From positions 1,665,001 through 1,729,000 of the forward strand of contig NC_092579.1 of the NCBI RefSeq assembly GCF_037975245.1: a stretch of 64,000 nucleotides of DNA, read 5' to 3'. Of this stretch, positions 1-63,631 are shown in pieces (position 1 is the stretch's first letter; every line of letters starts with the position of its first letter). Under the pieces are notes generated by a model. The model saw only the letters and a list, made by a program, of their open reading frames with translations, did not search any database and was not told the origin of the DNA. Source of the DNA: Apostichopus japonicus (taxonomy: Eukaryota > Echinodermata > Holothuroidea > Aspidochirotida > Stichopodidae). Both the position numbers and the translations under genes were made by a program.

Positions 1-58
1 GATAGATATAATAATGAATACAAATATGTATTCATATATGGTATACTTTAATATTAAC

Positions 59-304
59 CTATATGTTAAATCTGTAATACGAAATCTTACTGTATTCGCA
101 AAAGGCACAGCAAACGTCTAGATACAAAAGTCCACACCTTGCACTAGGACAAGTTTCAATTATACAATTCGTTGTTCCATTATTACAACGACACGCAGTA
201 CACGGACCAAGCATAACACGCTGGTCATGAAAAAGTAACACTCCCCTGAAGAAGCAAGGGCTTCCTAAAACAACAAACAAGAAGGGTGTGCAAGATAATA
301 ACAT
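59..304 (-). CDS. Small secreted single-VWC-domain peptide, left copy
   Basis: The 81-residue reading frame starts with a hydrophobic signal-like stretch (about residues 1-16). The rest is a cysteine-rich module with the von Willebrand C spacing: a Cys at residue 18, a CTACRC cluster, two more spaced Cys, then the CC..C ending. Single-VWC peptides in invertebrates are secreted and some respond to infection or stress; that role is family knowledge, not seen here. A possible splice donor (GTAAGA, at 90-85) lies just after the last cysteine, so this may be a first exon rather than a full gene. The ATG at 304 is the first in frame. A paralogue lies at 41,426-41,671. Confidence 0.6.
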   Translation of the reverse strand: MLLSCTPFLFVVLGSPCFFRGVLLFHDQRVMLGPCTACRCNNGTTNCIIETCPSARCGLLYLDVCCAFCEYSKISYYRFNI

Positions 305-1988
305 GCAAGTGTGAACAATTCTTCATTAATCTCGTAAATATAGATTTCAAAAATGTAACTGAGTGGAACAAATACGAAGGCCATTAAACCAGAGGTATTG
401 TATTATCTCGGTCAACTGCCTGGAGGTGTAAGACAAAAGTAGAACTTTATACTTAATGTATCAAAGCTTCACACATTTCATAATCTTTTTAACACACTTC
501 GTATACATTCCATATTTAGAGCATGCGGATATAAATGCATTCATATATACTATAATCCATACATGCTTGCATATCGAGTAAACGCCAAAACAGCCTTTAA
601 AAGCTTTAACCGCATTTAAAACCCCTCAAGGGAAAAGTTGTAATATATACTTTAATTCAATGCCTATTTCAGCATGTACTTTATTGGCGGCTCCAGGATT
701 TACGGGAGAGGAGATATAATATCGATAAATACCGAAATTGCTGCCTATTGAATATGCAGTGAACTCCTGCATTTAGGAAACGACGCTACTAATAAGGAAT
801 GCTATAGTTTCAACACTTTGTATATCGTATACCTTATAGTTTTGAGAAAGCCTAGATGTTGACAGAACCAATAACATTTCAGACGAAAGGGCTCTTAGGG
901 CGCGGATCCAGGGGATGGGGTGGAGGGGTCCAGTAGGTGGGGTGAAGAGGAGGGCAGATACACATCCATGCCTTTACTTAGTTCTTAGGCTAGCAGAACC
1001 TGTAGCGTTTAGACCTAGCTGTAGTCTGTATTAATAGCCTACAGCGTTCCTCACATTGCACCAATTCAGATTTTCTGCTATCGAATAAGACCCACTGTAA
1101 GAGTCGGCTTCAACGAACCCTGAGTCCTCTCACTACCTTTTTAAATCCTAAATCCGCCTTGTTGCCCCCCCCCACCCCTGGCCTTGTTATGGCTTTCCAT
1201 GGTCCGCCATGATATACCCTGCACCTTGTTTAAGCACACGTTAATTGTGGTACTCTAATCAAGAAACGTTATAAAGGTTTAGTAATACCTGAATCTCGGT
1301 AGTCGGACACACTTTCACTACCTGACTGGGCCTGGACCTGGGAAGATAATCCGACCAAGACGACAAAAAATAACCTTGTTAAATGGATCGCTTGTACATC
1401 CATATTTTCTTGAATATATTTAGTTATATATTATATATATATCTTATTATATATAATATATATATATATATATCATATATAATATCTCAGTTTTCATCAC
1501 CAACGTCACCAATAGCATGAAGCCTACGAATGTTGAATTTGCAAAGATATCAAAAACTTTCGTTCTCCATAGAATGACGGTATAAATATATAATAATTGA
1601 GAGTGCAGTGACTGGTAATACTTAGAACCTATTGAAAGACGGTCAATACATTAAGCACAGAAGATAGAACCACCAGTCTGTGTATTTAAATCGATGATGT
1701 GTTTGCTCTTTACTGTCGCACATTATTCAGCATGACAAATAATAACGGTCGAGAGGAAACAGGAAACCACCGTGAAATATCAAGGATTGTTTGAAAGGAG
1801 TTAAAGGATTTAAAGGGGAAAATACCGTAAGTATAATGTATTCCACACCATATCCTGTCAAAACACCTTCGATCTTCATCATACTGTATACGGAGATAAG
1901 CATGTTTTGAACACCTGCACGTTAGTAAAGCAATGATTTGACGTCGGGGGCCATTTTGAAAAGCATTTACACAGTTTGACTTCTTTAC

Positions 1989-1990
<2 letters not shown>
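305..1990. other. Non-coding part of the left block
   Basis: I see no supported gene. The stretch holds a GC-rich segment with TIR-like ends (898-1161) and a short TATA-type microsatellite (about 1425-1475). The rest is unremarkable AT-rich sequence, also present in the right block. Confidence 0.6.
898..1161. mobile_element. Possible non-autonomous hAT-like element, left copy
   Basis: The left end reads GGGCGCGGATCCAGG and the right end, reverse-complemented, CAAGGCGGATTTAGGA. These are imperfect inverted ends of the same CGGATCCAG type seen at 5045-5635 and 50,637-51,655. I find no clean target-site duplication, so the call is tentative. The duplicate lies at about 42,265-42,529. Confidence 0.35.
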
Positions 1991-2073
<83 letters not shown>

Positions 2074-2113
2074 TATATAAATATATATATATTTATATAT
2101 ATATATATATATT
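1991..2113. repeat. TA microsatellite at a SINE tail
   Basis: About 120 bp of TA repeats with a few A insertions. On the minus strand it directly follows the 3' end of the SINE at 2114-2230 and looks like an expanded SINE tail. The same arrangement occurs at 43,361-43,639. Confidence 0.9.
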
Positions 2114-2230
2114 TGATGTTGCAGTGAGTTGTAAAATCCAGAACAGCGAAAAAGTTCCAACCCCACACCGCGATCCGAACCGGGCTCCCGCTTTATATGC
2201 GGACCCACTTACCACTAGGCTATGAACGCT
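2114..2230 (-). mobile_element. tRNA-derived SINE (copy 1, left block)
   Basis: Read on the minus strand, a tRNA-like head carries an A box (TAGCCTAGTGGTAAGTGGG) and, about 30 bases on, a B box (GGTTCGGATCG). An unrelated short body follows, ending in the TA tract. The head does not close an intact acceptor stem, so it is a SINE and not a functional tRNA. A related copy lies at 2446-2563. Confidence 0.75.
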
Positions 2231-2445
2231 GATTGTATGTACAGAGGCTCGAAACCGGCAAGGAAAGTCGTAATTTCACTGTAGGCGGTTGCCACCAGTA
2301 TCGAACAATTATAGTTCTGTTTTGGTGACATATTTTGCCTTACTCTAGAGATCAAACATGATGTCATTTGTGATTCCTAAAGCCGGATCTCGAAAGAGAT
2401 ACTTTGAACAGACTTTATGTTAAATGAAATTGAAATATACGACAA

Positions 2446-2563
2446 AATTGTAGCGAGTTGGAAAATCCAGAACAGCGAAAAAAAATCCAGCCTCCACCAG
2501 GATTCGTATCCGAACCTCTTCCGCTTTATATGCGGACACCCTAACCACTAGGCTATGGACGCC
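2446..2563 (-). mobile_element. tRNA-derived SINE (copy 2, left block)
   Basis: Same family as the element at 2114-2230. It has the A box TAGCCTAGTGGTTAGGGTG, a B-box-like GGTTCGGATACGAATC, and a shared body (CTGTTCTGGATTTTCCAAC). It has no TA tail here. The right block carries its counterpart at 43,901-44,015. Confidence 0.75.
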
Positions 2564-3624
2564 TGTGTCCCCTACATTATTAACCCCTTTGCAAAATACA
2601 AAGTAGCATATGTAAATCACATTATCATAATCACAAGAGAGGGAAGGGGGTCAGAGACCATATTCAACATTGGGAATTTTGACCACAGTGCTTGGGTAAT
2701 AATATATGGGGGCATTTTTAGCTCTATATCAAACAGGAATTTGCTGTATTCCAAGACGATCAGCTGGTTTCGATTGAATTGTTTACCTGCATATAAGTTA
2801 CATTATTATTAATATAGCAGTTGATTGTGATTGAATAAGTTGATTGTGATATAAGTAACATTGTTTATGACTGATTGGTTTGGTCACCATTTGTCTTGTT
2901 GGTAATATATTCTTGGTGATATCTTGGTGATATCAACAAAGGCTAAAAACATATAGGTACTCCGTCTTTACACAGGGATCTTTACAAAGTCAAGAACCAC
3001 TTGGATATATATATATATATATAGCCCAATTTCAAAAGCCATCCATGTGTTGCGTACCAGGCCCTGATATTTTCCTGGCCTAGCATTGGAAACTTATAGT
3101 TGGAAAGATTAATATGTATTATAAAACTGTGACTCTACCACCCCTATAAAAAAAATTATAATAATAACAACAAAAATATCAGGCTTTTTATTAGTTTTAT
3201 TTTAACTAAAATAAAGTAGTCAAAGGGATGACCTCACATGTGAACAGGAATTTCTCTAACATCATCAAACTCTTGCCCTGTTAGTAAGAGATTTCATGCC
3301 TGGTTTACTGCCAAATTCTAAATAATTTATAGGCCACATTTTACATTGAAATATAACAATTTCATTTTTTTTTCTGTATCACAATTTGCTTTTTCAAATT
3401 AAACCCAAGTTGTAAATTCTGTTGGGAATGTTTACGTACTCGTATGTACAGATGTACCTAAAACATTATATCACACGATTAAAGAGGCAATGTCTGTAAG
3501 AGCAAATATATAAATTACCATGAAAGTGAAAAATAAAGGAGTTTGTGAATCAGAAATTTGACTTTGGTCTATTCTTTGATTTTGATTTGCATTTTTGTTA
3601 TCGCTGTATAAATTAAAAATCAAC

Positions 3625-3957
3625 TGTAGCAAAAAGTGACCAACGTTAGAGAATAGTATAGTGCTAGAAATTGAGGAAACATAGCACGTAAGAAATATTA
3701 GCACTTTTTGCTAAACTGTGTTTAGCACAGGTTACTCCTAAACTTTTCTGTAAAATTTGTCATAAATATTGGTTAAATATTACATTGCCCATAGTTTAGC
3801 AACTTAGGTTTTGCCCAATTCTGAAGACAAATGTTACCCTAAAGTTTAGGAAAACCTGTGCCAAACACAGTTAGCAATATGTGCTAATAAAATATCCGTC
3901 TTTGGTTGCCCAATTTCTAGTAATAATATTCTCCAATGGTGGGCACTTTTTGCTACA
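3625..3957. mobile_element. Foldback/MITE-like element, left copy
   Basis: Two arms of roughly 120 bp face each other (about 3625-3748 and 3840-3957). The outer ends are TGTAGCAAAAAGTG and its reverse complement, and the arms share imperfect pairing through the GCACAGGTT / AACCTGTGC segments. There is no coding capacity and no certain target-site duplication. The duplicate lies at 45,079-45,411. Confidence 0.65.
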
Positions 3958-4018
3958 TCGTTCTTACCGTGTATTGGAAGGGACGATATCATTTTGAATC
4001 ATCGATATAATATAATCG

Positions 4019-21466: not shown

Positions 21467-22506
21467 ACGAAAATCCACGTTCACTCCAAAAGAAAATATC
21501 ATTAGAGAAAACCGGAGAAATCAGATATGACTCATATTTGACAAATAAGGAGTAAATGTTTAGAAAATAAACCTGGAATTTTCGGTCCCCGTGGAACCTT
21601 CGTAAGAAATACTCCGCAGTCGAATGAAAAGAACAAAATGTAAAATAATGAGAGTATGGCGCTAGATACTGTATTCCAAGATGCTGTATTCCAAGAAGAT
21701 CGGTCTGTAGGAGAATCGTTTATGGTACACCCGTGCTAGCATTTCGTCAACCCCCCAACCTTAGATTCCAACTCATTTCCTCCAGACTTCCTTACTCTGT
21801 GTCTACCTCCGCAGGCAATTTCCTTTGCATTAAACCTCGATGCCAAATATGCCCCCATATTACCCCAGGCACCGAGGTAGAAATTCCCAATGTTGACTAT
21901 AGTCTAACACCCCTTCCCTCTCTTATGATTCTATTATTGTTATTCACATTTTCTACTGTGTACTTTGCAAAGAGGGCAATTATGTAGGTGAAACAGGATC
22001 CCGGTTCCGCTTACGTTTTAATAATCACAAAAAAACTATTTGTGATAATTTTGCAGGGTTCTCCTTTTCTGAACATTTCAATCTTCATAGTCATAAAACC
22101 TAAAATGCATTTTAATCGCCTCGAACAACAAATCCACCACTGAACGTAAACGTAAAGACATCGATTGGATCTTTCGTATTTAGTCTCACATCACCGGCCT
22201 CAATAAAGACTTGGGACCCCTTAACAGCTATCAGTTCTACAAACATGTGTAATCCGTTCTTTGCTCCTTAATCCGCTTCCTGTAAAGTCATGGTTTATTT
22301 GGTTCTAATTCCATCTTTGCAACTTACATTTATCTAGCGTCATACTTTCATTGTGTTACATTTTTGTATTTTTCATTCGACTACCAAGTATTGCTGACGA
22401 AGGTCCCAGGGGGACCGAAAATTCCAATATATTTTCTAAAACTTTACTCCTTATTTGTCAATTATGATTCATATCTTAATTCTCTGGTTTTCCCTAAATT
22501 TTATTT

Positions 22507-22510
<4 letters not shown>
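21466..22510 (+). mobile_element. Penelope-like element fragment 1 (GIY-YIG end)
   Basis: A plus-strand coding remnant at about 21,733-22,100 reads FRQPPNLRFQLISSRL and CIKPRCQIC. After a frameshift it continues FYCVLCKEGNYVGETGSRF, then LRFNNHKKTI and SEHFNLHSH. This order (NLR motif, Cys knuckle, GIY-YIG nuclease) is typical of the C-terminal end of Penelope-like reverse transcriptases. No RT domain remains. The two ends carry an inverted repeat of about 120 bp, each with a GACC-GAAAATTCC segment; inverted terminal repeats are known for this group. It lies between unit 1 and truncated gene A2. Confidence 0.75.
22380..22425 (+). ncRNA. Hammerhead-like core remnant in the Penelope end
   Basis: The sequence has CTGACGA (fits CUGANGA), a hairpin GGTCCC/GGGACC, then GAAA. 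That is the central half of a hammerhead core. I see no convincing stem I or cleavage triplet, so it may be inactive or coincidental. The same motif occurs at about 31,450-31,495. Confidence 0.35.
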
Positions 22511-30516: not shown

Positions 30517-31574
30517 AACGAAAATCCACGTTCACTCCAAAAGAAAATATCATTAGAGAAAACCGGAGAAATCAGATATGACTCATATTTGACAAATAAG
30601 GAGTAAATGTTTAGAAAATAAACCTGGAATTTTCGGTCCCCGTGGAACCTTCGTAAGAAATACTCCGCAGTCGAATGAAAAGAACAAAATGTAAAATAAT
30701 GAGAGTATGACGCTAGATACTGTATTCCAAGATGCTGTATTCCAAGAAGATCGGTCTGTAGGAGAATCGTTTATGGTACACCCGTGCTAGCATTTCGTCA
30801 ACCCCCCAACCTTAGATTCCAACTCATTTCCTCCAGACTTCCTTACTCTGTGTCTACCTCCGCAGGCAATTTCCTTTGCATTAAACCTCGATGCCAAATA
30901 TGCCCCCATATTACCCCAGGCACCGAGGTAGAAATTCCCAATGTTGACTATAGTCTAACACCCCTTCCCTCTCTTATGATTCTATTATTGTTATTCACAT
31001 TTTCTACTGTGTACTTTGCAAAGAGGGCAATTATGTAGGTGAAACAGGATCCCGGTTCCGCTTACGTTTTAATAATCACAAAAAAAGCTATTTGTGATCA
31101 TTTTGCAGGGTTCTCCTTTTCCGAACATTTCAATCTTCATAGTCATAAAACCTAAAATGCATTTTAATCGCCTCGAACAACAAATCCACCACTGAACGTA
31201 AACGTAAAGACATCGATTGGATCTTTCGTATTTAGTCTCACATCACCGGCCTCAATAAAGACTTGGGACCCCTTAACAGCTATCAGTTCTACAAACATGT
31301 GTAATCCGTTCTTTGCTCCTTACGTTCTTTGCTCCTTAATCCGCTTCCTGTAAAGTCATGGTTTATTTGGTTCTAATTCCATCTTTGCAACTTACATCTA
31401 TCTAGCGTCATACTTTCATTGTGTTACATTTTTGTATTTTTCATTCGACTACCAAGTATTGCTGACGAAGGTCCCAGGGGGACCGAAAATTCCAATATAT
31501 TTTCTAAAACTTTACTCCTTATTTGTCAATTATGATTCATATCTTAATTCTCTGGTTTTCCCTAAATTTTATTT

Positions 31575-31578
<4 letters not shown>
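30516..31578 (+). mobile_element. Penelope-like element fragment 2
   Basis: Near-identical copy of 21,466-22,510, with the same NLR motif, Cys knuckle, frameshift and GIY-YIG remnant and the same inverted ends. It differs by a short duplication (GTTCTTTGCTCCTTA, about 31,309-31,338). It was evidently copied together with the unit rather than inserted afresh. Confidence 0.75.
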
Positions 31579-38200: not shown

Positions 38201-39773
38201 TGTACCCGATATATCAAGCAGTTGTTGCAGACCAAACCTTCCTAAGACTGTTCTTTAGGGTAATCGCTACTTCATATGTAAATACAATCGCATAGAATGG
38301 GAAGGAAGGAATGGGAAGTTTGAGACAGGACTACAGAAGGATTAAAGACAACTTGCCTAAGAAGATTTTGCAATTGCAGAGACAAAGCTCACCTTGTAAA
38401 GCTACTGATATTCGTTTTGGAACTAAGGAAACATTTCACGGAATAACAATCAGTACTGCATCGTGATTTTTTTATTTCTTTAATCATGTACATTTCTCAT
38501 CGCCTTTAAATAAAATTTTAAAAACACCCTTGCAATCTAATATACCTCATCTGAATTTATTAAAGTTAAATCAACAACAGGAATCTGATTGGAATAACCA
38601 ATATATTTTGAAAACAGCAGGAAAATTTTAGAATGTGATACAAAATTAATAATAACACAATTTTAAGTATATGTAACGTACGGGGTCCTAACTTCAGGCT
38701 GACTCAAATCTTGTGAAATACAAGATATATATTTGCTCTGTTGCCTAATACAATAACAGGGATAAATCAATGTGAATTATTTTCAACTTGATATTGTCAT
38801 TCTGGAATTTATCTCTAGAATTTGTCAATACTCTGACGCCCCGCGTGTAACCCCATTCTACACATCTCAGCATAGATGGCTACAGCTGAACAGAAATGTA
38901 TATACTTCATAATATATATCGATTTACGACGCACCCTTAATTGTTAGTGAGCCACAAGAGACAATATATAATACCTATTTGTGCATTTTAAATATTATGT
39001 TTTATAAACTAATGTTTTATTTTAAATTACTAGTAAAATTTATAGATTTCAGATTGACTATAATGATATTTTATAAATTAAAAAAAAAGTGCATCTAATT
39101 CAGTTAGACGCATGGACAACTATGACGGAAAACTCTACCCCTTATTTTACATAACTAAGAAGGGACTGACTGTCCTGACATGATTCTTTAGTTCATTTAT
39201 CTGAACATAATTTAATCTATAACAAATCATACAAGTGAACACAAAATAAATAAAACTGAACATACCCGCTGACATTTGTTTTGCTCTTTCAAATATTCTG
39301 GGCTAGTATCCACGAAACTATTTGCACTATCAAACTTATAAACATGGCATATTCAGAACTACTAACAATGCACCGCGGTCAAAGACAAAGTAAGAAGTAA
39401 CTTATGTGACGTTGATAAATGTTTGATAAAACTATGTATATAAATACAGTAGTAGCCTATCACACTAACTTAAACATTACTTCTAGGGCACCGTTGAGAA
39501 TTAAAGCTATAGCACGTGGCAACCTCCTACTAAATCAATCAACAAATTGTATTTCTTTTAAAAAGCTGCATGATATGCTGAGAATAACATTGAATCTTTA
39601 ACTACTTACAATTATTCTTTATTTTTTTTAAGCAATGAAGACATTTGATCAATTTACCAGTCATAATTTCAGAAATGCCTCGGTAGGTTTTGAAAAATAG
39701 ATGATTCAACAATGATTTATTGCAGTTTTGATGCCAAATAATGTTGTCCCTTTTAAATATGCATCCTGTGTAA
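35240..39773. other. Unit 3 non-coding region
   Basis: Counterpart of the unit 1 and 2 spacers. From about 37,880 to 39,120 it diverges clearly from both, with substitutions and several small deletions; it matches closely again further right. No gene is supported. The G-rich tract is kept at about 37,337-37,369. Confidence 0.6.
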
Positions 39774-39781
39774 ATATATAT

Positions 39782-39820
<39 letters not shown>

Positions 39821-39973
39821 GATATATATAGATATATATATATATATAGATAGATATATATATATATGTATATGTATATATATAATATATATATATATAT
39901 AGATATATATAGATATATATATATACTATAGATAGATATATATATATATGTATATGTATATATATAATTATAT

Positions 39974-40022
<49 letters not shown>
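39774..40022. repeat. Compound TA/TAGA/TGTA microsatellite
   Basis: TA repeats with GATA and TGTATATG interruptions and a partial internal duplication of about 115 bp. It ends the tandem array where a Penelope fragment would be expected. Confidence 0.9.
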
Positions 40023-40023
<1 letters not shown>

Positions 40024-40101
40024 CTATATATAAGAATTGAATGTGTAGCAAGTGGTATGACAGATATATAGTAAATCAATAAAAATAAACACACCAGAAA
40101 A

Positions 40102-40157
40102 ATTCCACCTTCCCGACCGGTTTCGTCCTATGGGACTCATCAGGCGAAGGTAGGAAT
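40102..40157 (-). ncRNA. Type I hammerhead ribozyme
   Basis: On the minus strand all core parts are present in order. There is a stem I 5' strand, CTGATGAG, a 4-bp stem II with a CATA loop (GTCC/GGAC), GAAA, a minimal self-complementary ACC/GGT stem III and the cleavage triplet GTC. The stem I 3' strand follows: GGGAAGGTGGAAT, which pairs with ATTCCTACCTTCGC apart from one bulged base and one mismatch. Predicted cleavage is between 40,115 and 40,114. Hammerheads with such short stem III are known from Penelope-like elements and related retroelements, where they may act as dimers. Confidence 0.8.
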
Positions 40158-41377
<1,220 letters not shown>

Positions 41378-41425
41378 ATAATGAATACAAATATGTATTC
41401 ATATATGGTATACTTTAATATTAAC

Positions 41426-41671
41426 CTATATGTGAAATCTGTAATACGAAATCTTACTGTATTCGCAAAAGTCACAGCAAACGTCTAGAAACAAAAATCC
41501 ACACCTTGCACTAGGACAAGTTTCAATTATACAATTCGTTGTTCCATTATTACAACGACACGCAGTACACGGACCAAGCCTAACACGCTGGTCGTGAAGA
41601 AGTAACACTCCCCTGAAGAAGCAAGGGCTTCCTAAAACAACAAACAAGAAGGGTGTACAAGATAATAACAT
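41426..41671 (-). CDS. Small secreted single-VWC-domain peptide, right copy
   Basis: 81 residues with the same signal-like start and ten-cysteine VWC pattern as 59-304. The two copies differ at eight bases, six of which change residues (F/L, M/R, L/F, Y/F, A/D and N/H), while all cysteines are kept. The same possible splice donor follows the last cysteine. Confidence 0.6.
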   Translation of the reverse strand: MLLSCTPFLFVVLGSPCFFRGVLLLHDQRVRLGPCTACRCNNGTTNCIIETCPSARCGFLFLDVCCDFCEYSKISYYRFHI

Positions 41672-43360
41672 GCAAGTGTGAACAATTCTTCATTAATCTC
41701 GTTAATATAGATTTCAAAAATGTAACTGAGTGGAACAAATACGAAGGCCATTAAACCAGAGGTATTGTGTTATCTCGGTCAACTGCCTGGAGGTGTAAGA
41801 CAAAAGTAGAACTTTATACTTAATGTATCAAAGCTTCACACATTTCATAATCTTTTTAACACACTCCGTATACATTCCATATTTAGAGCATGCGGATATA
41901 AATGCATTCATATATACCATAATCCATACATGCTTGCATATCGAGTAAACGCCAAAACAGTCTTTAAAAGCTTTAACCGCATTTAAAACCCCTCAAGGGA
42001 AAAGTTGTAATATATACTTTAATTCAATGCCTATTTCAGCATGTACTTTATTGGCGGCTCCAGGATTTACGGAAGAGGGGATATAATATCGATAAATACC
42101 GAAATTACTGCCTATTGAATATGCAGTGAACTCCTGCATTTAGGAAACGACGCTACAAATAAGGAATGCTATAGTTTCAACACTTTGTATATCGTATACC
42201 TTATAGAGTTTAGAAAACCTAGATGTTGACAGAACCAATAACATTTCAGTTTAAAGGGATCTTAGGGCGCGGATCCAGGGAATGGGGTGAAGGGGTCTAG
42301 TAGGTGGGGTGAAGGGGAGGGCAGATACACATCCATGCCTTACTTAGTTCTTAGGCTAACAGAAACTGTAGCGTATAAACCTACACTTGTAGTCCGTATT
42401 AATAGCCTACACCATTCCTCACATTGCACCAATTCAGATTTTCTGCTATCGAATAAGACCCACTGTAAGAGTCGGCTTCAACGAACCCTGAGTCCTCTCA
42501 CTACCTTTTTAAATCCTAAATCCGCCTTGTTGCCCCCCCTCCCCTACCCCTGGCCTTGTTATGGCTTTCCATGGTCCGCCATGATATACCCCTGCACCTT
42601 GTTTAAGCACACGTTAATTGTGGTACTCTAATCAAGAAACGTTATAAAGGTTTAGTAATACCTGAATCTCGGTAGTCGGACACACTTTCAATACCTGACT
42701 GGGCCTGGACCTGGGAAAATAATTCGACCAAGACGACAAAAAATAACCTGGTTAAATGGATCGCTTGTCCATCCATATTGTCTTGAATATATTTAGTTAT
42801 ATATTAAATATATATATCTTATTATATATAATATATATATATATCATATATAATATCTCAATTTTAATCACCAACGTCACCAATAGCATGAAGCCTACGA
42901 ATGTTGAATTTGCAAAGATATCAAAAACTTTCGTTCTCCATAGAATGACGGTATAAATATATAAATATAGAGAGTGCAGTGACTGGTAATACTTAGAACC
43001 TATTGAAAGACGGTCAATACATTTAGCACAGAAGTTAGAACCACCAGTCTGTGTATTTAAATCAATCGTTGTGTTTGCTATTTCCTGGCGCACATTATTC
43101 AGCATGACTAATAATAACGGTCGAGAGGAAACAGGAAACCACCGTGAAATATCAAGGATTGTTTGAAAGGAGTTAAAGAATTTAAAAGGGAAAATACCGT
43201 AAGTGTAATGTATTCCACACCATATCCTGTCAAAACTCCTTCAATCTTCATCATACTGTATACGGAGATAAGCATGTTTTGAACACCTGCACGTTAGTAA
43301 AGCAATGATTTGACGTCGGGGGCCATTTTGAAAAGAATTTACACAGTTTGACTTCTTTAC
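41672..43360. other. Non-coding part of the right block
   Basis: Counterpart of 305-1990, including the TIR-like GC-rich segment (about 42,265-42,529) and a short TATA tract near 42,800-42,850. No gene is seen. Confidence 0.6.
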
Positions 43361-43520
<160 letters not shown>

Positions 43521-43639
43521 TTGATGTTGCAGTGAGTTGGAAAATCCAGAACAGCGAAAAAGTTCCAACCCCACACCGCGATTCGAACCGGGCTCCCGCT
43601 TTATATGCGGACCCACTTACCACTAGGCTATGAACGCTG
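43521..43639 (-). mobile_element. tRNA-derived SINE (copy 1, right block)
   Basis: Counterpart of 2114-2230. The B box here is GGTTCGAATCG, closer to the consensus than the left copy. Confidence 0.75.
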
Positions 43640-43900
43640 ATTGTATGTACAGAGGTTCGAAACCGGCAAGGAAAGTCGTAATTTCACTGTAGGCGGTTGC
43701 CACCAGTATCGAACAATTATAGTTCTGTTTTGGTGACATATTTTGCCTTACTCTAGAGATCAAACATGATTCTAAACAACTCGAAGTCATTTGTGATTCC
43801 TAAAGCCGGATCTCGAAAGAGATACTTTGAACAGACTTTATGTTAAATGAAATTGAAATATACGACAAAAGCGAATGAATACATATCTATAATTGAAATT

Positions 43901-44015
43901 GTAGCGAGTTGGAAAATCCAGAACAGTGAAAAAAAAATCCAGCCTCCACCAGGATTCGTATCCGAACCTCTTCCGCTTTATATGTGGACACCCTAACCAC
44001 TAGGCTATGGACGCC
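43901..44015 (-). mobile_element. tRNA-derived SINE (copy 2, right block)
   Basis: Counterpart of 2446-2563, with the same A and B boxes. The flank beyond its 3' end keeps about 30 bp (AAAGCGAATGAATACA..) that the left copy lacks. Confidence 0.75.
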
Positions 44016-45078
44016 TGTGTCCCCTACATTATTAACCCCTTTGCAAAATACAAAGTAGCATATGCAAATCACATTATCATAATCACAAGAGAGGGAAGGG
44101 GGTCAGAGACCATATTCAACATTGGGAATTTTGACCACAGTGCTTGGGTAATAATATATGGGGGCATTTTTAGCTCTATATCGAACAGGAATTTGCTGTA
44201 TTCCAAGACGATCAGCTGGTTTCGATTGAATTGTTTACCTGCATATAAGTTACATTATTATTAATATAGCAGTTGATTGTGATTGAATACGTTGATTGTG
44301 ATATAAGTAACATTGTTTATGACTGATTGGTTTGGTCACCATTTGTCTTGTTGGTAATATAATCTTGGTGATATCTTGGTGATATCAACAAAGGCTAAAA
44401 ACATATAGGTAATCCGTTTTTACACAGGGATCTTTACAAAGTCAAGAACCACTTGGATATATATATATATAGCCCAATTTCAAAAGCCATCCATGTGTTG
44501 CGTACCAGGCCCTGATATTTTCCTGGCCTAGCATTGGAAACTTATAGTTGGAAAGATTAATATGTATTATAAAACTGTGACTCTACCACCCCTATAAAAA
44601 AATTATAATAATAACAACAAAAATATCAGGCTTTTTATTAGTTTTATTTTAACTAAAATAAAGTAGTCAAAGGGATTACCTCACATGTGACCAGGAATTT
44701 CTCTAACATCATCAAACTCTTGCCCTGTTAGTAAGAGATTTCATGCCTGGTTTACTGCCAAATTCTACATCATTTATAGGCCACATTTTACAGTGAAATA
44801 TAATAATTTCAATTTTTTTTTTTTTTTTGTATCACAATTTGCTTTTTCAAATTAAACCCAAGTTGTAAATTCTGTTGGGAAATGTTTACGTACTCGTATG
44901 TACAGATGTACCTAAAACATTATATCACACGATTAAAGAGGCAATGTCTGTAAAAGCAAATATATAAATTACCATGAAAGTGAAAAATAAACGAGTTTGT
45001 GAATCAGAAATTTGACTTTGGTCTATTCTTTGATTTTGATTTGCATTTTTGTTATCGCTGTATAAATTAAAAATCAAC

Positions 45079-45411
45079 TGTAGCAGAAAGTGACCAACGT
45101 TAGAGAATAGTATAGTGCTAGAAATTGAGGGAAACATAGCACGTAAGAAATATTAGCACTTTTTGCTAAACTGTGTTTAGCACAGGTTACTCCTAAACTT
45201 TTCTGTAAAATTTGTCATAAATATTGGTTAAATATTACATTGCCCATAGTTTAGCAACTTAGGTTTTGCCCAATTTTGAAGACAAATGTTACCCTAAAGT
45301 TTAGGAAAACCTGTGCCAAACACAGTTAGCAATATGTGCTAATAAATATCCGTCTTTGGTTGCCCAATTTCTAGTAATAATATTCTCCAATGGTGGGCAC
45401 TTTTTGCTACA
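45079..45411. mobile_element. Foldback/MITE-like element, right copy
   Basis: Counterpart of 3625-3957, with the same facing arms and TGTAGC / GCTACA ends. Confidence 0.65.
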
Positions 45412-45466
45412 TCGTTCTTACCGTGTATTGGAAGGGACGATATCATATTGAATCATCGATATTATA

Positions 45467-48400
45467 TCTTTACTTCTGTTGTTGAAGTTTTCAGTCGCAA
45501 TTGACAATTGTCAAGATTCAGTGCCAAATAAAAACTTCAGGTTTGGATTTTGTAACGTTGGGAGATGACCAGGCGCCGTTTACGAAAATAAACTGTTGCC
45601 AAGTTAGATGTTTTAAAGGTACACCAGACTCAAAATCTTGGGGACCAGTTGGTAAAATCGCCCGGCGTCTGCTCAATGTACGGCTCGGATGTGTACCACA
45701 TTGAATCGAAGAAGCCTGTTGTCTGTGGTATATATCAGTCTGTATGCTGAATACAAGAAAAGTTTCCATCTCGGTCATCAGCTGCCAATGTGGATATTGT
45801 TTGTCACATCTCAGTTCTTTTTGCTGTGCTACTTAGATTGAAGTATGTTGTTCATTCTGGCTATACCGTACAGCCTAGTGTGTCACATTCTATAAGATGA
45901 TTCATGTGGCATCATCGAAACCACACTGCAGTTTTGCTGTCTGGTTATTCTTATATTTGATGTGTAGATGTGTTTGTAGAAACCAGTGTTATAATAATCG
46001 AAAAGTATTCGGTATATACTCTTTGAGGCGTCAGCGTACATGTAAAAAGTAAAGAACTCGTGTACTTGTGCTCCTTTTAATATAATCGTATGGGACGAGT
46101 ACTTAAAAGAATACTTTCATAATAAAATATTAAAAAATAGTTATGTAAATATGATACGACAGGAAGTTTCATAACTTTTTGATCCTTTGGTCATTCTATT
46201 GTACATTATATGGTATTATACTACAAAAATTTGGGAAAGCAGATTACATGCAGACATCATAAAAAAAAAGTAAACTTGGCCTAAATGATGTCCCAGCGGA
46301 TTGCCGTTAGTGACATTTACATAACGTGAGTTTTGGCATTGTGGCTCTTTCGTGGAAAACTTGATAATAGATTAAACTGTAAGAAAGAAGATTAGAGAAA
46401 CGTACTTTATTTAGCCCTTTATTGGAAGTAGAATATTTGAGCCCAAATACCAAAAATAGATGGTGAGATAAATGCAGATTGTGAAAGTTTCATCGAACCA
46501 TTGCCATTTGTTCATATTGTCTATTGAGAACACAGTAATGATATTTACCACCTGCAGAAAGACGGTAAAACAATTGGATCACTGTTTCGAGTTAACCAAA
46601 ATATTCCATTAGTAAACTAAGGTTTTGTTTTGAGTGATAAATTAGGAACATATGTATACTCCAAGTGGTGACATTTGATGCATTCAATTCCTGTTGTGAC
46701 TTTTTGAGAAGACAACATTTGAACTTGAAGCAACCAGCTGTGTGATTTCCATTGATCAACACTGACATAATTGCTTCTGTCTTGCTTCAAAATGGGCATC
46801 GAATAATGTTTTTGACTAATTTTGGATGCATTCTAATCGGCGTGAACCCAACTCATTGAATGGTGGATCGTAACACTTGACGTCTCCTCCCTTATTTCTT
46901 TTCCAATTTAGAATGTTTCACATATATTAACAAAACGAAATTACCCTTAGACAATCCAATAATAACGTCCAAATATTTGGTACTGATGGATTGCTAGATA
47001 TTCGATGCAATTCTGCATACTCACACACGAATATACACACATGCATACAGACACACACATCCGCCTTCACAACAATACGTAAAATTCTCTATACTTTGGT
47101 TCGTTATTCTCGAATTGAACAAGACAGGTAACATTTGAACGCATTTGAGTTAACAACATCCTGCAAAAAAGTTGCAACAAATGTTAGCGGTATTTAGACT
47201 CGGTGTTATTTGGTGATCTCGGGCACGAACAGCTATAGCCCGTAATGACATGGCATTATATACTACACAGTCATACACACAAGAAATAAACATATGATCT
47301 TAACTTTCAAGTACCTTACGCTAGAAAGAATTTATATAAATATTCCGTCTTTCCCTGCACCCTAGAAGATCAGACATTGTGCATGCACCTAGTCTAGACT
47401 GTTTCAAAGACAAGCTTACTAACTCTTCTTGTTTTGTTATCTAATAGCTAATAGGGGACTACTCTTACTCATACTTTGTAGCGCTCGGTTGGCGTTTATG
47501 TCCTCTAGTAGGAGTTTACCGACTTAACCCATTCAGGGTCAGATTCAGAGTTATAGTTTCCAAGCTAGCTGCTCTGTACGTATATGTCACATATTATGTG
47601 TTTTGGATGATGATACACCAGGGCCAGGAAATCGACCATGCAGTTTTAATAGACCGGAGAGTGTAACATTTGTGCAATGATAGACCTACAATGTATTCGT
47701 TAGATTAATCGTGCATTACACCTTCGTAAACCACAGTATGTTCGAGAAAAACATTAACTATATATGAGAGGATACAGTAACATTAACATGTACTTCAATT
47801 TGACCAATCAATGTCCAGGACGCTGGGTATTCTCTGTCACGTCCGGAACATGAATGAGTCGTGATTGACAACCGGTTATAATCAGTAATGGCTTTAGTCT
47901 AAATGTCTTCGTTTATATCACAGGCGCATGCTAGCTAGAGTCTGTTTATAAATATAGCCTATAGCTTTGGTCTACGTTAAAGGACCAAACGCCGAACTGG
48001 CTTATTCGTGACCGAAATAACTTCTAAAGGGTTGCAGTATTAACAAAGACCCATCCATTGAATATCAACAACTAACTAACTTTCACCTTCACCGCGCACT
48101 ACAATGACACTTATTTGTTTGCAAATACAGTTGTTCTAGTTTGATCAATTGTGTTTGCAAGATACCCATATCTTAGTAGTACTTTAGATATTCTTTTGTT
48201 TACTTGATGTTCATGCATTTATTTATGCCTGAATAATCCGATGATATAAAGAAACCACAGCAAGAACTCCACTCTCGTTTCACCAAGGGTGACAATTAAC
48301 CTACTTAACGGTCCCTTTGTCGTATTTATCGAAACGCTCAGCTTTGATTGTAGGAATTGTCCATTTTTTCACGTGGTTTTGGGCCTTCATATGTTGCTAG

Positions 48401-53216: not shown

Positions 53217-56200
53217 TCACAAGTCAATGGCTTGTTTTCCAAATTCCATAGTTACATAAAAGCTCGTTATGAGAAGGATTGACCTTAGTGAGATCAATGG
53301 GACGTCATATTTCACGTGCTTCAGAAACCAGTCGATTTCATCCCAAAACTTCTTCTCTTTGTCGCGATTCATGAAGATCACGTTCATCTTAAAACTCTCC
53401 CAAATATAGTTGGTGTTGAATCCTCCAACAGCCAGAGGCCCAAGAGAAAAGAACATGGCGACATCGGACCAGATCATAAAATTTACGTTTTTCTCCATTA
53501 CAAACCACTCGTGGTCTTTGCTACCATCGTTGACCATGTCGTTGACCATGTAGAACCACGAGATGCTAGTCGCAGCGCCTAAGATGCAGGCGGGTATCAT
53601 TACAGACATATATGCAGCTACGCATTTTTGATAACATTTAAAATCGACCAACACGCGTCTTATTACTTGTTGGCATAGTTCTGTTTCTCCTTCAAATTTG
53701 TGTAGAAATTTCAAGAGAAGCTGAAAATGATTTTGAAAAGATATTCTTATCAGGAATATCTGGAACATAAAGCAACCCCATATAAGCTCAGCAATAGCCA
53801 CGGTTAGACAACTAATTTTATCAGGTAAGCCAGTCTGTCCCTTAACTCCTAACTTAATATATGCTCTGTAAGTTGCAGCAAAAACAGGCCAAATGAGACA
53901 TAGGACAAGGAAATGTTTCGCCGGTACTCCTGTAAGAGAGAAAGAATGTTGGTATAACTGAATTCAGAGAATTTGTGGGGGCGTGTCACATAATGTCATT
54001 TGCACAAATTACCATGTAAAGAATAGGATACATGTCTGTATTTTGAAATACTACACTTGGTGATCCATATATATATCCATAACAGCGCTTCTTTTAGAAA
54101 GAACATTGATTATCAACTGTAAGAAGACTCAGATACTTAAGTGACATCATTAACTATCTCTAATGTACGTATAGAACCCTCGTAAACATTTGGTCATTTG
54201 AACACTTGGTCATACCCCATACCTTTAGAAAATTATTTGGTGCCACCTTAGCCCCCGCACAACCCCCTTCTGCCCCAAATGAAATGTTCAACAACAAAAA
54301 ACAGGCGATACACAATACTTTAACGACTTCTATAGACCCTAATTAACTTGCTTCCACCTCCAAAATGCTGCTAAATTGGAAGCTGATATAAGCTATGGTA
54401 ATTATGGAAACTGAAATGCGCTCGCACCTCCCGCGCCAGCTTTCATTACCCGCATTCTGTGCCCCACCCTTCCAAATGTTTCCATCATCTTTTTTGCCTC
54501 CCACTTTCAAATGTCTAGCGATGTCACTGACCGTTTGATCAATATTGTATTACGTCCCTGAGTCATATAAAGTGTAAGATCGCAATATTGATCAGGTATA
54601 GGGTGTATGAAAACTGAAGAGCTGTGCAAGGATCTGTGTGGTGCATCGTACGAGTACACACTCAACCACGATAATAGTTGCTACTGTAGAGCTGCAACTA
54701 GACCTGTGTCGTGTATAGACCGGCTAGGGAATCCATTACATACATTATCAATACAACACTATTTTATTTTATTCATTATTTTAAAGATCAGCAGTATTGG
54801 CCTTAGAAATTAAACTATAAACGTTTCCAGCAATATGTTCTTAGTGGTTCTGAGTTCTTATTACATGTTCACATTTTTTTCAGGACTATTAAACTAGAAC
54901 AATTTTAAAGCCTCAACGTGGAAAACAACGTTTATAATGGCAGTAAAAATGATATTTTGAAATTTGATTATGGGGTGACAATTATTATTAATGAACTTCT
55001 GCTGGCATATTTGGGGGCAACCTTGATTACCTTTAAATCAAATGTGGACTGCATTTGATGGGTTTAAGTATTTTACATGGTACCGAAAAACTTACCAAAG
55101 TGAAAGCATGAAGAAAGAAAAAGAAAAAAACAAACAACAGAAGACAGAAGATGAAGAACTGATTTATAACCGTTACCTTTGGCAGAAAGATCCAAAAACT
55201 GAAGGCGCTGAACAATAAAGCGAGCATTCAGGGTTGTAGCCCATATTCCTGGTACCATCATAACACTTCTAACCTTCGAGCAGATGTTCATACATGGAAA
55301 GACAACTAGTGGAGAGTAGAATGCTAAGTAAGACATCAAATTCACGATGCGATCTCTTTTAGCGAAATAAGCTAGTTCCAGTACTATTATCTCGTAGGTC
55401 ATAATGGTCACTATAACAGTCAGAATAAGAATGGAGATGAACCAACTTCCGGGATGGTTCCAATATTTGAGACCTGGAAGGAAGAAAATGATGCAGCAAA
55501 TAATAAAAAAAATGAGAGAAGTGGTGAATAGATATTCAGGTTCAAAACATTGGTATATATTTACACCATTTGATTATTTCACCTATAAACGTATGTAAAT
55601 TACACCAGTCAGGTTCCTATGTCCGTGTTCGAAGCATTTCAAACACACACGCAGTGTCGTCAAAATATCAAGATCTTATCTCTAAATTTTCTGCAAGTCA
55701 TTATGTTGTGTCAAAATGCGGTTGAGTTGGTGAAATATGTTAAGTGATAAATGTTGTTTGTTTAATGTTGTTTGAAAAATAATAATTTCATCATGTTGCA
55801 ACAAACTCTTGAATTCTTCATTTATTTGATTTAAGGAATTTGGCACCCCCCACCCACCCCCACCCACCGCCCCAATTGTTAACATAGTATCTGAAAAGTT
55901 AATCATTTCTTAACTACTATATTCACAGAAAGATCTTAACATTATGATGGCACCTCAAAGTTTCCATAGGTTATCAATCACTCTCTTTCTAAAAGTAGGC
56001 GCTAACTTTTTCATCGGCTTGGGGGTACTGACAACAATAAGGTATAGAATATGTTATATATAATACTGTGTTGGCTGTGGAGACATGCTCACTTAGAAAA
56101 TACACTGAAAATTGAATACCTTGGTTCACCTACTACGTACAAGGTGGTGTTATATCACAATGGTCCAAAAACTGGACCCCATCCACAGGAAGACAGCAGC

Positions 56201-61085: not shown

Positions 61086-63631
61086 TCAAAAGTCAACTAC
61101 TTGCTTTCCAAATTCCACAGTGACGTAAAGACCCACCATCGCTAGGACTGTGGTTAAAGAGATGAGTGGCACGTCATCTTGGACTTGCTTCAGAAAACGA
61201 ATGATATCATTCCAGAATTTCCTCTCTTCATCGCGTTTCATGAAGATCACGCTGATCTGAAAGTTCTCCCAAATGTAGTTGGCGTTGAAACCACCAATAG
61301 CCAGAGGCCCAAGAGAAAAGAACATGGCGACATCGGACCAGATCATAAAATTCACGTTTTTCTCCATTACAAACCACTCGTGGTCTTTGCTACCATCGTT
61401 GACCATGTCGTTGACCATGTAGAACCACGAGATGCTAGTCGCAGCGCCTATGATGCAGGCGGGTATCATTACAGACATATATGCAGCTACGCATTTTTGA
61501 TAACATTTAAAATCGACCAACACGCGTCTTATTACTTGTTGGCATAGTTCTGTTTCTCCTTCAAATTTTTGTAGAAACTTCAAGAGAAGCTGAAAATGAT
61601 TTTGAAAAGATATTCTTATCAGGAATAACTGGAACATAAAGCAACCCCATATAAGCTCAGCAATAGCCACGGTTAGACAACTAATTTTATCAGGTAAGCC
61701 AGTCTGTCCCTTAACTCCTAACTTAATGTATGTTCTGTAAGTTGCAGCAAAAACAGGCCAAATGAGACATAGGACAAGGAAATGTTTCGCCGGTACTCCT
61801 GTAAGAGAGAAAGAATGGTTGTTATAACTGAATTCAGAGAATGTGGGGGCGTGGCACATAACTTCATTTGCACAAATTACCATGTAAGGAATAGGATACA
61901 TGTCTGTATTTTGAAATACTACACTTGGTGATACCATAAAAACGCTTCTTTTTAGAAAGAACATTGATTATCAGCTGTAAGGAGACTCAGATACTTAAGT
62001 GACATCATTAACTATCTCTAATTTACGTCTAGTAATCCCGTAAATTTTCGACGCCACGTGTGCCAAATGTAAACGTATGGAAAAAACTCAGTCAATAATA
62101 TACTGCTGCTGTACAGCTGCACGCATACCTGTGTAATAAAGATTTTTCAGAGGCTCTGTTACATACATACACAGTCACGAATAAACTGCTGCTGTACAGC
62201 TGCACGCATACCTGTGTCATGAAGATTTGTCGAGGCTCCATTTACATACATACTCAGTCAAGAATAAACTACTGCTGTAAAGCTGCACGCATACCTGTGA
62301 CATGAAGATTTGTCAGAGGCTCCATTACATACATACTGAGTCAAGAATAAACTGCTGCTGTACAGCTGCACGCATACCTGTGTCATGAAGATTTGTCAGA
62401 GGCTCCATTTACATACATACTGAGTCACGAATAAACTGCTGCTGTAAAGCTGCACGCATACCTGTGTCATGAAGATTTGTCAGAGGCTCCATTTACATAC
62501 ATACTCAGTCACGAATAAACTGCTGTTGTACAGCTACACGCATACCTGTGTCATGAAGATTTGTCGAGGCTCCATTTACATACATACTCAGTCAAGAATA
62601 AACTGCTGCTGTACAGCTGCACGCATACCTGCGTCATGAAGATTTGTCAGAGGCTCCATTTACATACATACTCAGTCACGAATAAACTGCTGCTGTACAG
62701 CTGCACGCATACCTGTGTAATAAAGATTTTGTCAGAGGCTCCATTTACATACATACTCGGTCACGAATAAACTGCTGCTGTACAGCTGCACGCATACCTG
62801 TGTCATGAAGATTTGTCAGAGGCTCCATTTACATACATACTCAGTCAAGAATAAACTGCTGCTGTACAGCTGCACGCATACCTGCGTCATGAAGATTTGT
62901 CAGAGGCTCCATTTACATACATACTCAGTCACGAATAAACTGCTGCTGTACAGCACGCATACCTGTGTAATAAAGATTTTGTCAGAGGCTCCATTTACAT
63001 ACATACTCGGTCACGAATAAACTGCTGCTGTACAGCTGCACACATACCTGTGTCATGAAGATTTGTCAGAGGCTCCATTTACATACATACTCAGTCAAGA
63101 ATAAACTGCTGCCGTACAGCTGCACACTAAGGCAAGAACAACAATACTACTATACAGCTGCACGCATACCTGTGACATGAAGAGCTCCATTAGTACCGAT
63201 TATTCCACTGAGCATCCCGTAGTATCTAGCACTGAACCAAAATCAACGCAGTGGTGGAGAGGTGGGGGGGGGGAGGTGGTGGATGGTGGGGAGTGGACGG
63301 AAAAGAGATAGAAGTTTAAAGCGTTTACCTTTGACAGCAAGATCCAAAAACTGGAGGCGCTGTACAATAAAGCGAGCATTTAGAGTTGTAGCCCATATTC
63401 CTCGTCCCCTCCAAGAGAATGCACTTGCAACCTTCGAATAGACGGTCATACACGGAAAGACGACTAGCGGAGAGTAGAATGCTATGTAAGACAACAAATT
63501 CACGATGCGGTCATGTTTAGCGAAATAATTTCTTTCAAGTACGACAGCTTCGTAAATCACAAGAATAATGATGATAGTCAGAATAAGAATGGAGACGAAC
63601 CAACTTCCTGGATGGTTCCAATATTTGAGAC
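61086..63631 (-). CDS. 7TM gustatory-receptor-like protein B, 5' end outside window
   Basis: Exon 2 (63,631-63,329) and exon 3 (61,798-61,086) correspond to those of gene A, with the same phase-1 junctions and splice sites (GTAAAC, TTACAG). Exon 3 has the same 713-bp length, and exon 2 is 6 bp longer (SAFSWRGRGIWATT). Exon 1 is not found by 64,000. The first two-thirds of exon 3 is almost identical to gene A, but the last third, covering the final loop and helix seven (ending VTVEFGKQVVDF), differs at many positions. Frames are open, so the gene looks functional. Confidence 0.7.
62075..63180. repeat. ~84-bp minisatellite in intron 2 of gene B
   Basis: About 13-14 head-to-tail copies of a unit containing CTGCTGCTGTACAGCTGCA and CATACCTGTGTCATGAAGAT, then CATTTACATACATACTCAG. 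Copies differ by a few substitutions and 1-2 base indels. The unit matches the single WSC-like fragment in the same intron of gene A, so it is an amplified exon scrap. It does not touch the splice sites. Confidence 0.9.

What the first reader, a model, noticed from the sequence alone, without database searches (positions are those of the whole stretch)
40102..40157. Complete type I hammerhead ribozyme next to a TAGA array
The minus strand contains every invariant piece of the hammerhead core in the right order, with a well-paired stem I, a 4-bp stem II and a minimal ACC/GGT stem III ending in GTC. Penelope-like elements are known to carry such ribozymes, and Penelope fragments lie at the other two unit junctions of the array. 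This one sits where the third would be, so it may be all that remains of that element.
Basis: partly seen in the sequence, partly recalled or inferred. Interest (0 to 1): 0.75.

Follow-up and report, generated by a model that had tools for sequence, protein, structure and literature searches.

The report
Penelope-mobilised hammerhead retrozyme, truncated copy
The ribozyme is real, but it is a clipped copy of a dispersed 341-bp non-coding mobile element with tRNA-gene-like promoter boxes, whose insertion scars match those of the genome's own Penelope retrotransposons, which suggests that these supply its copying machinery.

Summary
In detail: Rfam calls a type I hammerhead on the minus strand at 40109-40149 (35.3 bits, gathering 34, E 4.1e-5). 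But window 40030-40158 is a 5'-truncated copy of a dispersed family: a same-genome search gave 44 matches, 40 of 1081 candidates scored. Longer copies are tandem ~341-bp units: tRNA-type box A, box B running into hammerhead stem I, the hammerhead, ~87 nt more. This is a retrozyme (tRNA-type SINE with a hammerhead), as in schistosome Sm-alpha, not a Penelope remnant. Its insertion scars match those of the genome's Penelope-like element (PLE): (AT)n targets; head-to-head inverted clusters (22 of 83, no tail-to-tail); two 3' ends ~37 nt apart (26 of 28 ends in the set not chosen by 3' end); one end of each kind in 10 of 10 inverted clusters that end at both sites. Fetched PLE copies do the same (17 ends, 5 of 5 pairs). 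In that unbiased set no 3' end (0 of 28) lies at the ribozyme cut site, so the copied RNA was circular or uncut there. PLEs were published candidates as partner; this is structural evidence. No RNA, cleavage or enzyme data.

The parts
40102..40157 (-). type I hammerhead ribozyme with full stem I
   Evidence: Rfam RF00163, 40109-40149, 35.3 bits; sequence
40114..40115 (-). predicted self-cleavage site (C17 at 40115, next base 40114)
   Evidence: GUC triplet of the Rfam alignment; not tested biochemically
40116..40121 (-). palindromic ACCGGU stem III, can pair fully only between two copies
   Evidence: sequence; cofold of two copies gives the double hammerhead
40030..40158 (-). 5'-truncated retrozyme copy (monomer about 297-341 then 1-87)
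   Evidence: own-genome DNA search; placement on the monomer
39773..40035 (.). (AT)n-rich array abutting the retrozyme 3' (tailed) end
   Evidence: sequence; same junction type in other copies
40160..41377 (.). (TAGA)n microsatellite abutting the truncated 5' end; not part of the element
   Evidence: Tandem Repeats Finder; not seen beside the other copies listed
30518..31577 (+). Penelope-like 3' fragment with outward-facing inverted ends, inside (AT)n (unit 2 junction)
   Evidence: inverted repeat 135/163 identical and translation; end +85 from the presumed cut on the right, longer on the left
21468..22509 (+). same Penelope-like fragment at the unit 1 junction
   Evidence: self-BLAST, sequence, end position

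Best explanation
Window 40030-40158 is a 5'-truncated copy of a non-autonomous retrozyme. The full unit is ~341 bp and occurs singly or in short tandems: box A, box B, hammerhead, then ~87 nt. Proposed cycle: units are transcribed (inferred: from the tRNA-type promoter or by read-through); hammerheads of neighbouring units cut as pairs through the ACCGGU palindrome (inferred); unit RNAs circularise (inferred); the Penelope-like protein nicks (AT)n DNA and starts reverse transcription about 50 or 87 nt downstream of the ribozyme cut site, often from both target strands, giving head-to-head inserts with one short and one tailed end (the scars are shown; the enzyme is inferred from them). Copies longer than one unit come from going round a circle or from multimers. 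The window copy keeps only the hammerhead and tail, has no partner unit beside it and is probably inert.
For: Hammerhead. Dispersed family. Tandem spacing 336-357 bp in 10 loci. Box A at 249 and box B at 292 of the monomer; strict A+B pair in 0 of 20000 shuffles, 6 with a relaxed box B. 3' ends at ~50 (48) or ~87 (37) of 105; in the body-found set, not chosen by 3' end or hammerhead, 26 of 28. (AT)n beside 79 of 105 3' ends, 22 of 28 in the body-found set, against 1.9% of window 30-mers. No body-found 3' end at the cut site (0 of 28). Head-to-head 22 of 83 clusters, tail-to-tail 0. One short and one tailed end in 10 of 10 inverted clusters ending at both sites, 4 of 4 in the body-found set; P about 0.0009 pooled, 0.002 allowing for the query bias of one set. 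No A8 or T8 run in the 30-bp flanks of 105 3' ends. PLE: 17 of 17 pLTR ends abut an AT run at one of two places (10 short, 7 tailed), 15 of 17 with AT fraction >= 0.4 in the next 60 bp; 5 of 5 inverted pairs short/tailed; of 18 neighbouring matches within 10 kb among all 150 rows, 16 head-to-head, none tail-to-tail. Poseidon work: AT-rich cleavage, extension of both strands, internal initiation, 30-40 bp tail (PMC11167929); head-to-head PLE copies with a tail at one inverted end (PMC3846280 passages).
Against: No expression, circular RNA or cleavage data. Retrozyme and PLE tails share no sequence, and their RNA folds are not unusual against shuffles (z -1.1 and -0.9), so what the enzyme would recognise is unknown. 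A TTTTT run at monomer 12-16, just past stem I, could stop RNA polymerase III before a full unit is made. ARAGORN finds no tRNA in 5 loci. 20 of 105 3' ends fall outside the two classes, and 12 of 22 inverted clusters have at least one end elsewhere. Two of the three search sets are biased: hammerhead and 131-nt queries force copies to span the cut site, and the 131-nt query favours the tailed end. Several clusters are segmental duplicates, so events are fewer than 83. 8 of 61 5' ends lie near the cut site, about twice the 4 expected if spread evenly, which could hint at cut linear templates. The GIY-YIG domain of the PLE is recalled from a motif; Pfam found no family at that end, though RVT_1 is found upstream.
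Confidence: 0.84

Rival explanations
1. The hammerhead is the last remnant of a Penelope element at the third junction.
For: Penelope fragments at two equivalent junctions inside (AT)n; PLEs carry hammerheads (PMC7229834).
Against: The stretch matches a dispersed retrozyme family at 91-95%; the PLE of this genome has a different hammerhead-like string in 17 of 17 fetched pLTR ends.
Confidence: 0.04
2. The retrozyme is moved by a LINE, as most tRNA-type SINEs are (recalled), and the inverted pairs are LINE twin-priming products.
For: tRNA-type boxes; 5' truncation.
Against: In twin priming (recalled) the inverted part should end at a varying site; here its outer end is again at the ~50 or ~87 site in 14 of 22 inverted clusters (left ends), and where both ends are in the two classes they are always of different class, 10 of 10. 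No A8 or T8 run in 105 3' flanks of 30 bp.
Confidence: 0.07
3. The two 3' ends arise only from annealing of (AT)n DNA to AT tracts in the RNA, with no particular enzyme.
For: The ~50 end lies in CTATATAT.
Against: The ~87 end (TTCTTAT) is not an alternating tract; the PLE shows the same two-end pattern with different sequence.
Confidence: 0.06

Closest known systems
Metazoan non-LTR retrozymes (Cervera and de la Pena 2020, PMC7229834; mussel, coral, axolotl)
   Same: type I hammerhead in ~170-400 bp tandem units, low GC, non-coding, PLEs in the same genomes
   Different: has tRNA-type box A and box B, while a review says retrozymes seem to lack promoters (PMC7761336, passages); clear (AT)n target and two-end scars
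Sm-alpha SINE of Schistosoma mansoni
   Same: tRNA-type SINE-like element with a type I hammerhead (PMC2770079 and PMC8490949, passages)
   Different: Sm-alpha is linked to tRNA-Gln; no tRNA identity could be assigned here
Axolotl HHR_Amex1 hammerhead
   Same: helix III of one base pair capped by a palindromic tetraloop, works better as a dimer (PMC7229834); ACCGGU fits that description
   Different: different element; here the dimer is only predicted
Poseidon/Penelope elements (PMC11167929, PMC3846280)
   Same: AT-rich target, internal start of reverse transcription, 30-40 bp tail at one end, head-to-head copies
   Different: the retrozyme has no long frame (longest stop-to-stop frame 85 aa in two units) and shares no 3' sequence with the PLE here
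Rfam Hammerhead HH9 (RF02275)
   Same: family copy L033 aligns at 40 bits, including the UACCU internal loop of stem I
   Different: below the gathering score of 52; the window copy has closed that loop

Membership tests
Hammerhead ribozyme type I (RF00163) | covariance score over the gathering threshold, with core and GUC | tested here: met
   35.3 bits vs 34; all core bases present
Hammerhead ribozyme type I (RF00163) | self-cleavage of the RNA | not testable with these tools
   needs a transcription assay
Metazoan retrozyme | hammerhead in small tandem units of 170-400 bp | tested here: met
   tandem spacing 336-357 bp in 10 loci; the window copy itself is a lone ~129-nt piece
Metazoan retrozyme | expressed as circular RNA | not testable with these tools
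   no RNA data; 0 of 28 body-found 3' ends at the cut site, which fits circles or uncut multimers
tRNA-derived SINE | internal box A and box B at tRNA-like spacing (consensus recalled) | tested here: met
   boxes at 249 and 292 of the monomer; 0 of 20000 shuffles
tRNA-derived SINE | tRNA-like fold of the head | tested here: not met
   ARAGORN: no tRNA in 5 loci
Penelope-like element (the retrozyme itself) | RT plus GIY-YIG open reading frame | tested here: not met
   longest stop-to-stop frame in two units of the L033 monomer is 85 aa
Penelope-like element (the partner element) | reverse transcriptase domain | tested here: met
   RVT_1 E 3.5e-14 in a 666-aa stretch of an open frame, L100
Penelope-like element (the partner element) | GIY-YIG endonuclease | tested here: inconclusive
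   YVGETG string seen, recalled as GIY-YIG; no Pfam family

The most novel reading that the evidence does not exclude
A hammerhead retrozyme with its own polymerase III-type promoter, whose box B overlaps the ribozyme, feeds circular RNA to a Penelope-like enzyme that starts copying at two sites near the ribozyme from both strands of an (AT)n target. The enzyme would recognise the distance from, or shape of, the hammerhead, because the two elements share no sequence there.
Probability: 0.45. Interest if true: 0.78.

Novelty: new variant of a known kind. Interest (0 to 1): 0.6.

Why it matters
How animal retrozymes move is open: PLEs are named as a strong candidate (PMC7229834, passage), and a review says the repeats show no motif that points to a partner (PMC7761336, passages). 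The listings named no paper on shared insertion scars that I could see from titles and abstracts; I read parts of eight papers only, and the library lacks most subscription journals. If the scars seen here hold genome-wide, the partner question becomes testable in other sequenced animals, and with a purified PLE protein.

Tried and rejected
Penelope-remnant reading: rejected. TAGA array as part of the element: rejected. Sequence homology between PLE and retrozyme tails: none found. A special RNA fold at the start sites: not supported (z about -1). 5' ends at the ribozyme cut site, as a sign of cut linear templates: 8 of 61 (monomer 331-341 or 1-12), about twice the 4 expected if spread evenly, with L060/L061 probably one event; inconclusive. 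Strong purifying selection on the ribozyme: not shown; in body-found copies CUGAUGA departs from the majority in 0.5% of 196 cells but GAAA in 5.1% of 117, mostly G12 to A (4 of 29), against 6.9% in the downstream part and 4.7% in the tRNA-like part. Left flank of the window, to see whether the duplicate of region 41368-45467 also carries the retrozyme: L081 reads N for most of its length; not pursued. The organism was not identified. Phage search for the stretch: only weak partial matches.

Full report
Observation. The minus strand at 40102-40157 holds a type I hammerhead. Rfam scores it 35.3 bits (gathering 34), E 4.1e-5, the only one over threshold in 64 kb. Stem III is ACCGGU with no loop. 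Two copies cofold without constraint into the double hammerhead with a 6-bp shared stem III, both for the window and for the family sequence. That fits the amphibian-type weak helix III described in PMC7229834 (parts 1-3 of 6 read; passages).

Family. The own genome (unnamed, 671.6 Mb, 35 contigs) gave 59 RF00163 matches at E <= 0.001 among 74 scored of 66307 first-look candidates, 50 of them over the gathering score (the window's own copy is not in that list, so it is a lower bound). Window 40030-40160 gave 44 matches, with 40 scored of 1081 candidates: the window itself, 40 near-full copies at 91-95% and three short ones. A search with unit body only, without the hammerhead, gave 42 matches (40 scored of 577). 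Copies show a unit of ~341 bp: same-strand neighbours lie 336-357 bp apart in 10 loci (L016, L017, L030, L033, L035, L038, L045, L047, L053, L056); other spacings are 327 (L016), 212 (L023) and 1.6-3.2 kb (L028). On the L033 monomer, counted from the cut site: TTTTT 12-16, CTATATAT 43, TTCTTAT 78, box A 249, box B 292, CUGAUGA 312. A strict box A + box B pair at tRNA-like spacing occurred in 0 of 20000 dinucleotide shuffles, 6 with a relaxed box B. Box consensus sequences are recalled. ARAGORN finds no tRNA in 5 loci. The longest stop-to-stop frame in two units is 85 aa.

The window copy covers monomer 297-341 and 1-87. Against L033 it has a shorter loop II, an inserted G that closes the stem I internal loop, and a G.G mismatch. 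The family hammerhead also aligns with Rfam HH9, including that loop, at 40 bits, below its gathering score of 52. I take the window copy for a weaker ribozyme, standing alone; that is inference.

Insertion scars. I placed 83 insertion clusters from three searches: 31 found by hammerhead, 30 by the 131-nt window query, 22 by body. Some look like segmental duplicates (for example L016/L017, the three of L028, L048/L049, L060/L061, L065/L079). Of 105 outward 3' ends, 48 fall at about 50 (45-60) and 37 at about 87 (74-95). By set: 30 of 34 (hammerhead), 29 of 43 (131-nt), 26 of 28 (body). An (AT)n flank stands beside 27 of 34, 30 of 43 and 22 of 28 3' ends; 1.9% of 30-mers of the window meet the same measure. 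5' ends are scattered; 26 of 61 have an (AT)n flank. No 3' flank of 30 bp holds a run of eight A or T (0 of 105).

Cut site. Only the body-found set can speak on templates that end at the ribozyme cut site, because the other two queries contain the hammerhead. There, 0 of 28 3' ends lie at the cut site and 16 of 16 single-orientation clusters run through it. In the other sets two ends were scored there (L016, L047), but both run on past the alignment (flanks). The template was therefore circular or uncut at that place. 8 of 61 5' ends lie near the cut site, about twice an even spread; I leave that open.

Orientation. Twenty-two of 83 clusters are head-to-head, none tail-to-tail. In the 10 inverted clusters with both ends in the two classes, all have one short and one tailed end: 4 body-found, 1 hammerhead-found, 5 by the 131-nt query, which itself favours one tailed end. 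A permutation on pooled ends gives 0.0009; allowing for the biased set, about 0.002. The other 12 inverted clusters have at least one end elsewhere.

Penelope. A 58-aa piece of the window fragment found 150 matches (150 scored of 526 candidates), six of them in frames of 817-1029 codons. Among the 150 rows, 18 neighbours lie within 10 kb: 16 head-to-head, 1 ++ (the window's own duplication), 1 --, 0 tail-to-tail. Of 18 fetched 3' regions, 17 reach the pLTR (L088 does not). All 17 carry the same hammerhead-like string and stop at an AT run, either 73 nt past its presumed cut site (10) or after a further ~33-37 nt (7); the AT fraction of the next 60 bp is at least 0.4 in 15 of 17 (L089 0.35, L092 0.20). 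The 5 inverted pairs fetched on both sides are short/tailed; the DNA between the two halves was not fetched, except 2 kb at one place. RVT_1 is found in L100. The hammerhead-like string of the window PLE gave no Rfam hammerhead match at E <= 10. In Anolis Poseidon, the protein cuts AT-rich DNA, extends both strands, and starts internally at two sites that bound the 30-40 bp tail (PMC11167929, main-text section read in full; passages). That paper also finds ribozyme cleavage not needed for insertion in vitro, which fits an uncut template as well as a circle. From its numbers (cut site 26 bp, start 111-118 bp into the ORF) I compute +85 to +92; the retrozyme's tailed end is +87, the local PLE's about +110, so the distance match is only suggestive. 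Head-to-head copies and a tail at one of the inverted ends are described for rotifer Penelope (PMC3846280, passages).

Mechanism. Shown: family, tandem unit, promoter boxes as sequence, hammerhead, target, two ends, orientation bias, no 3' ends at the cut site, same pattern in the PLE. Inferred: transcription by polymerase III, dimeric cleavage, circularisation, use of the PLE protein. The TTTTT run past stem I is a difficulty for polymerase III transcription of whole units.

Known or new. tRNA-type SINEs with hammerheads are known (Sm-alpha; PMC2770079, PMC8490949, passages). Retrozymes and PLEs as partners were proposed (PMC7229834 and PMC11722881, passages). The new part, as far as the searches go, is structural evidence for that partnership, and promoter boxes in a retrozyme, which a review says they seem to lack (PMC7761336, passages). 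PMC6155905 was seen in passages only.

Noticed in passing
13154-39885: Three ~9.07-kb tandem units with minus-strand leucine-rich-repeat frames, two in each unit; the two of unit 1 match Pfam LRR_8. Unit borders lie in (AT)n.
   Followed up: partly
1-4013 and 41368-45467: About 96% identical duplication with a tRNA-like stretch in each (Rfam tRNA at 2489-2562 and 43941-44014, minus strand). A similar tRNA-like stretch stands beside some retrozyme copies (L001, L024).
   Followed up: no
62086-63125: 84-bp tandem array, ~12 copies.
   Followed up: no
53217-53963 and 61086-61967: Related minus-strand frames with several hydrophobic stretches; no Pfam family over its cut-off.
   Followed up: partly
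window 30518-31577, L082-L099: The abundant Penelope-like element carries a conserved hammerhead-like string with one extra base next to stem II that Rfam did not recognise in the window.
   Followed up: partly
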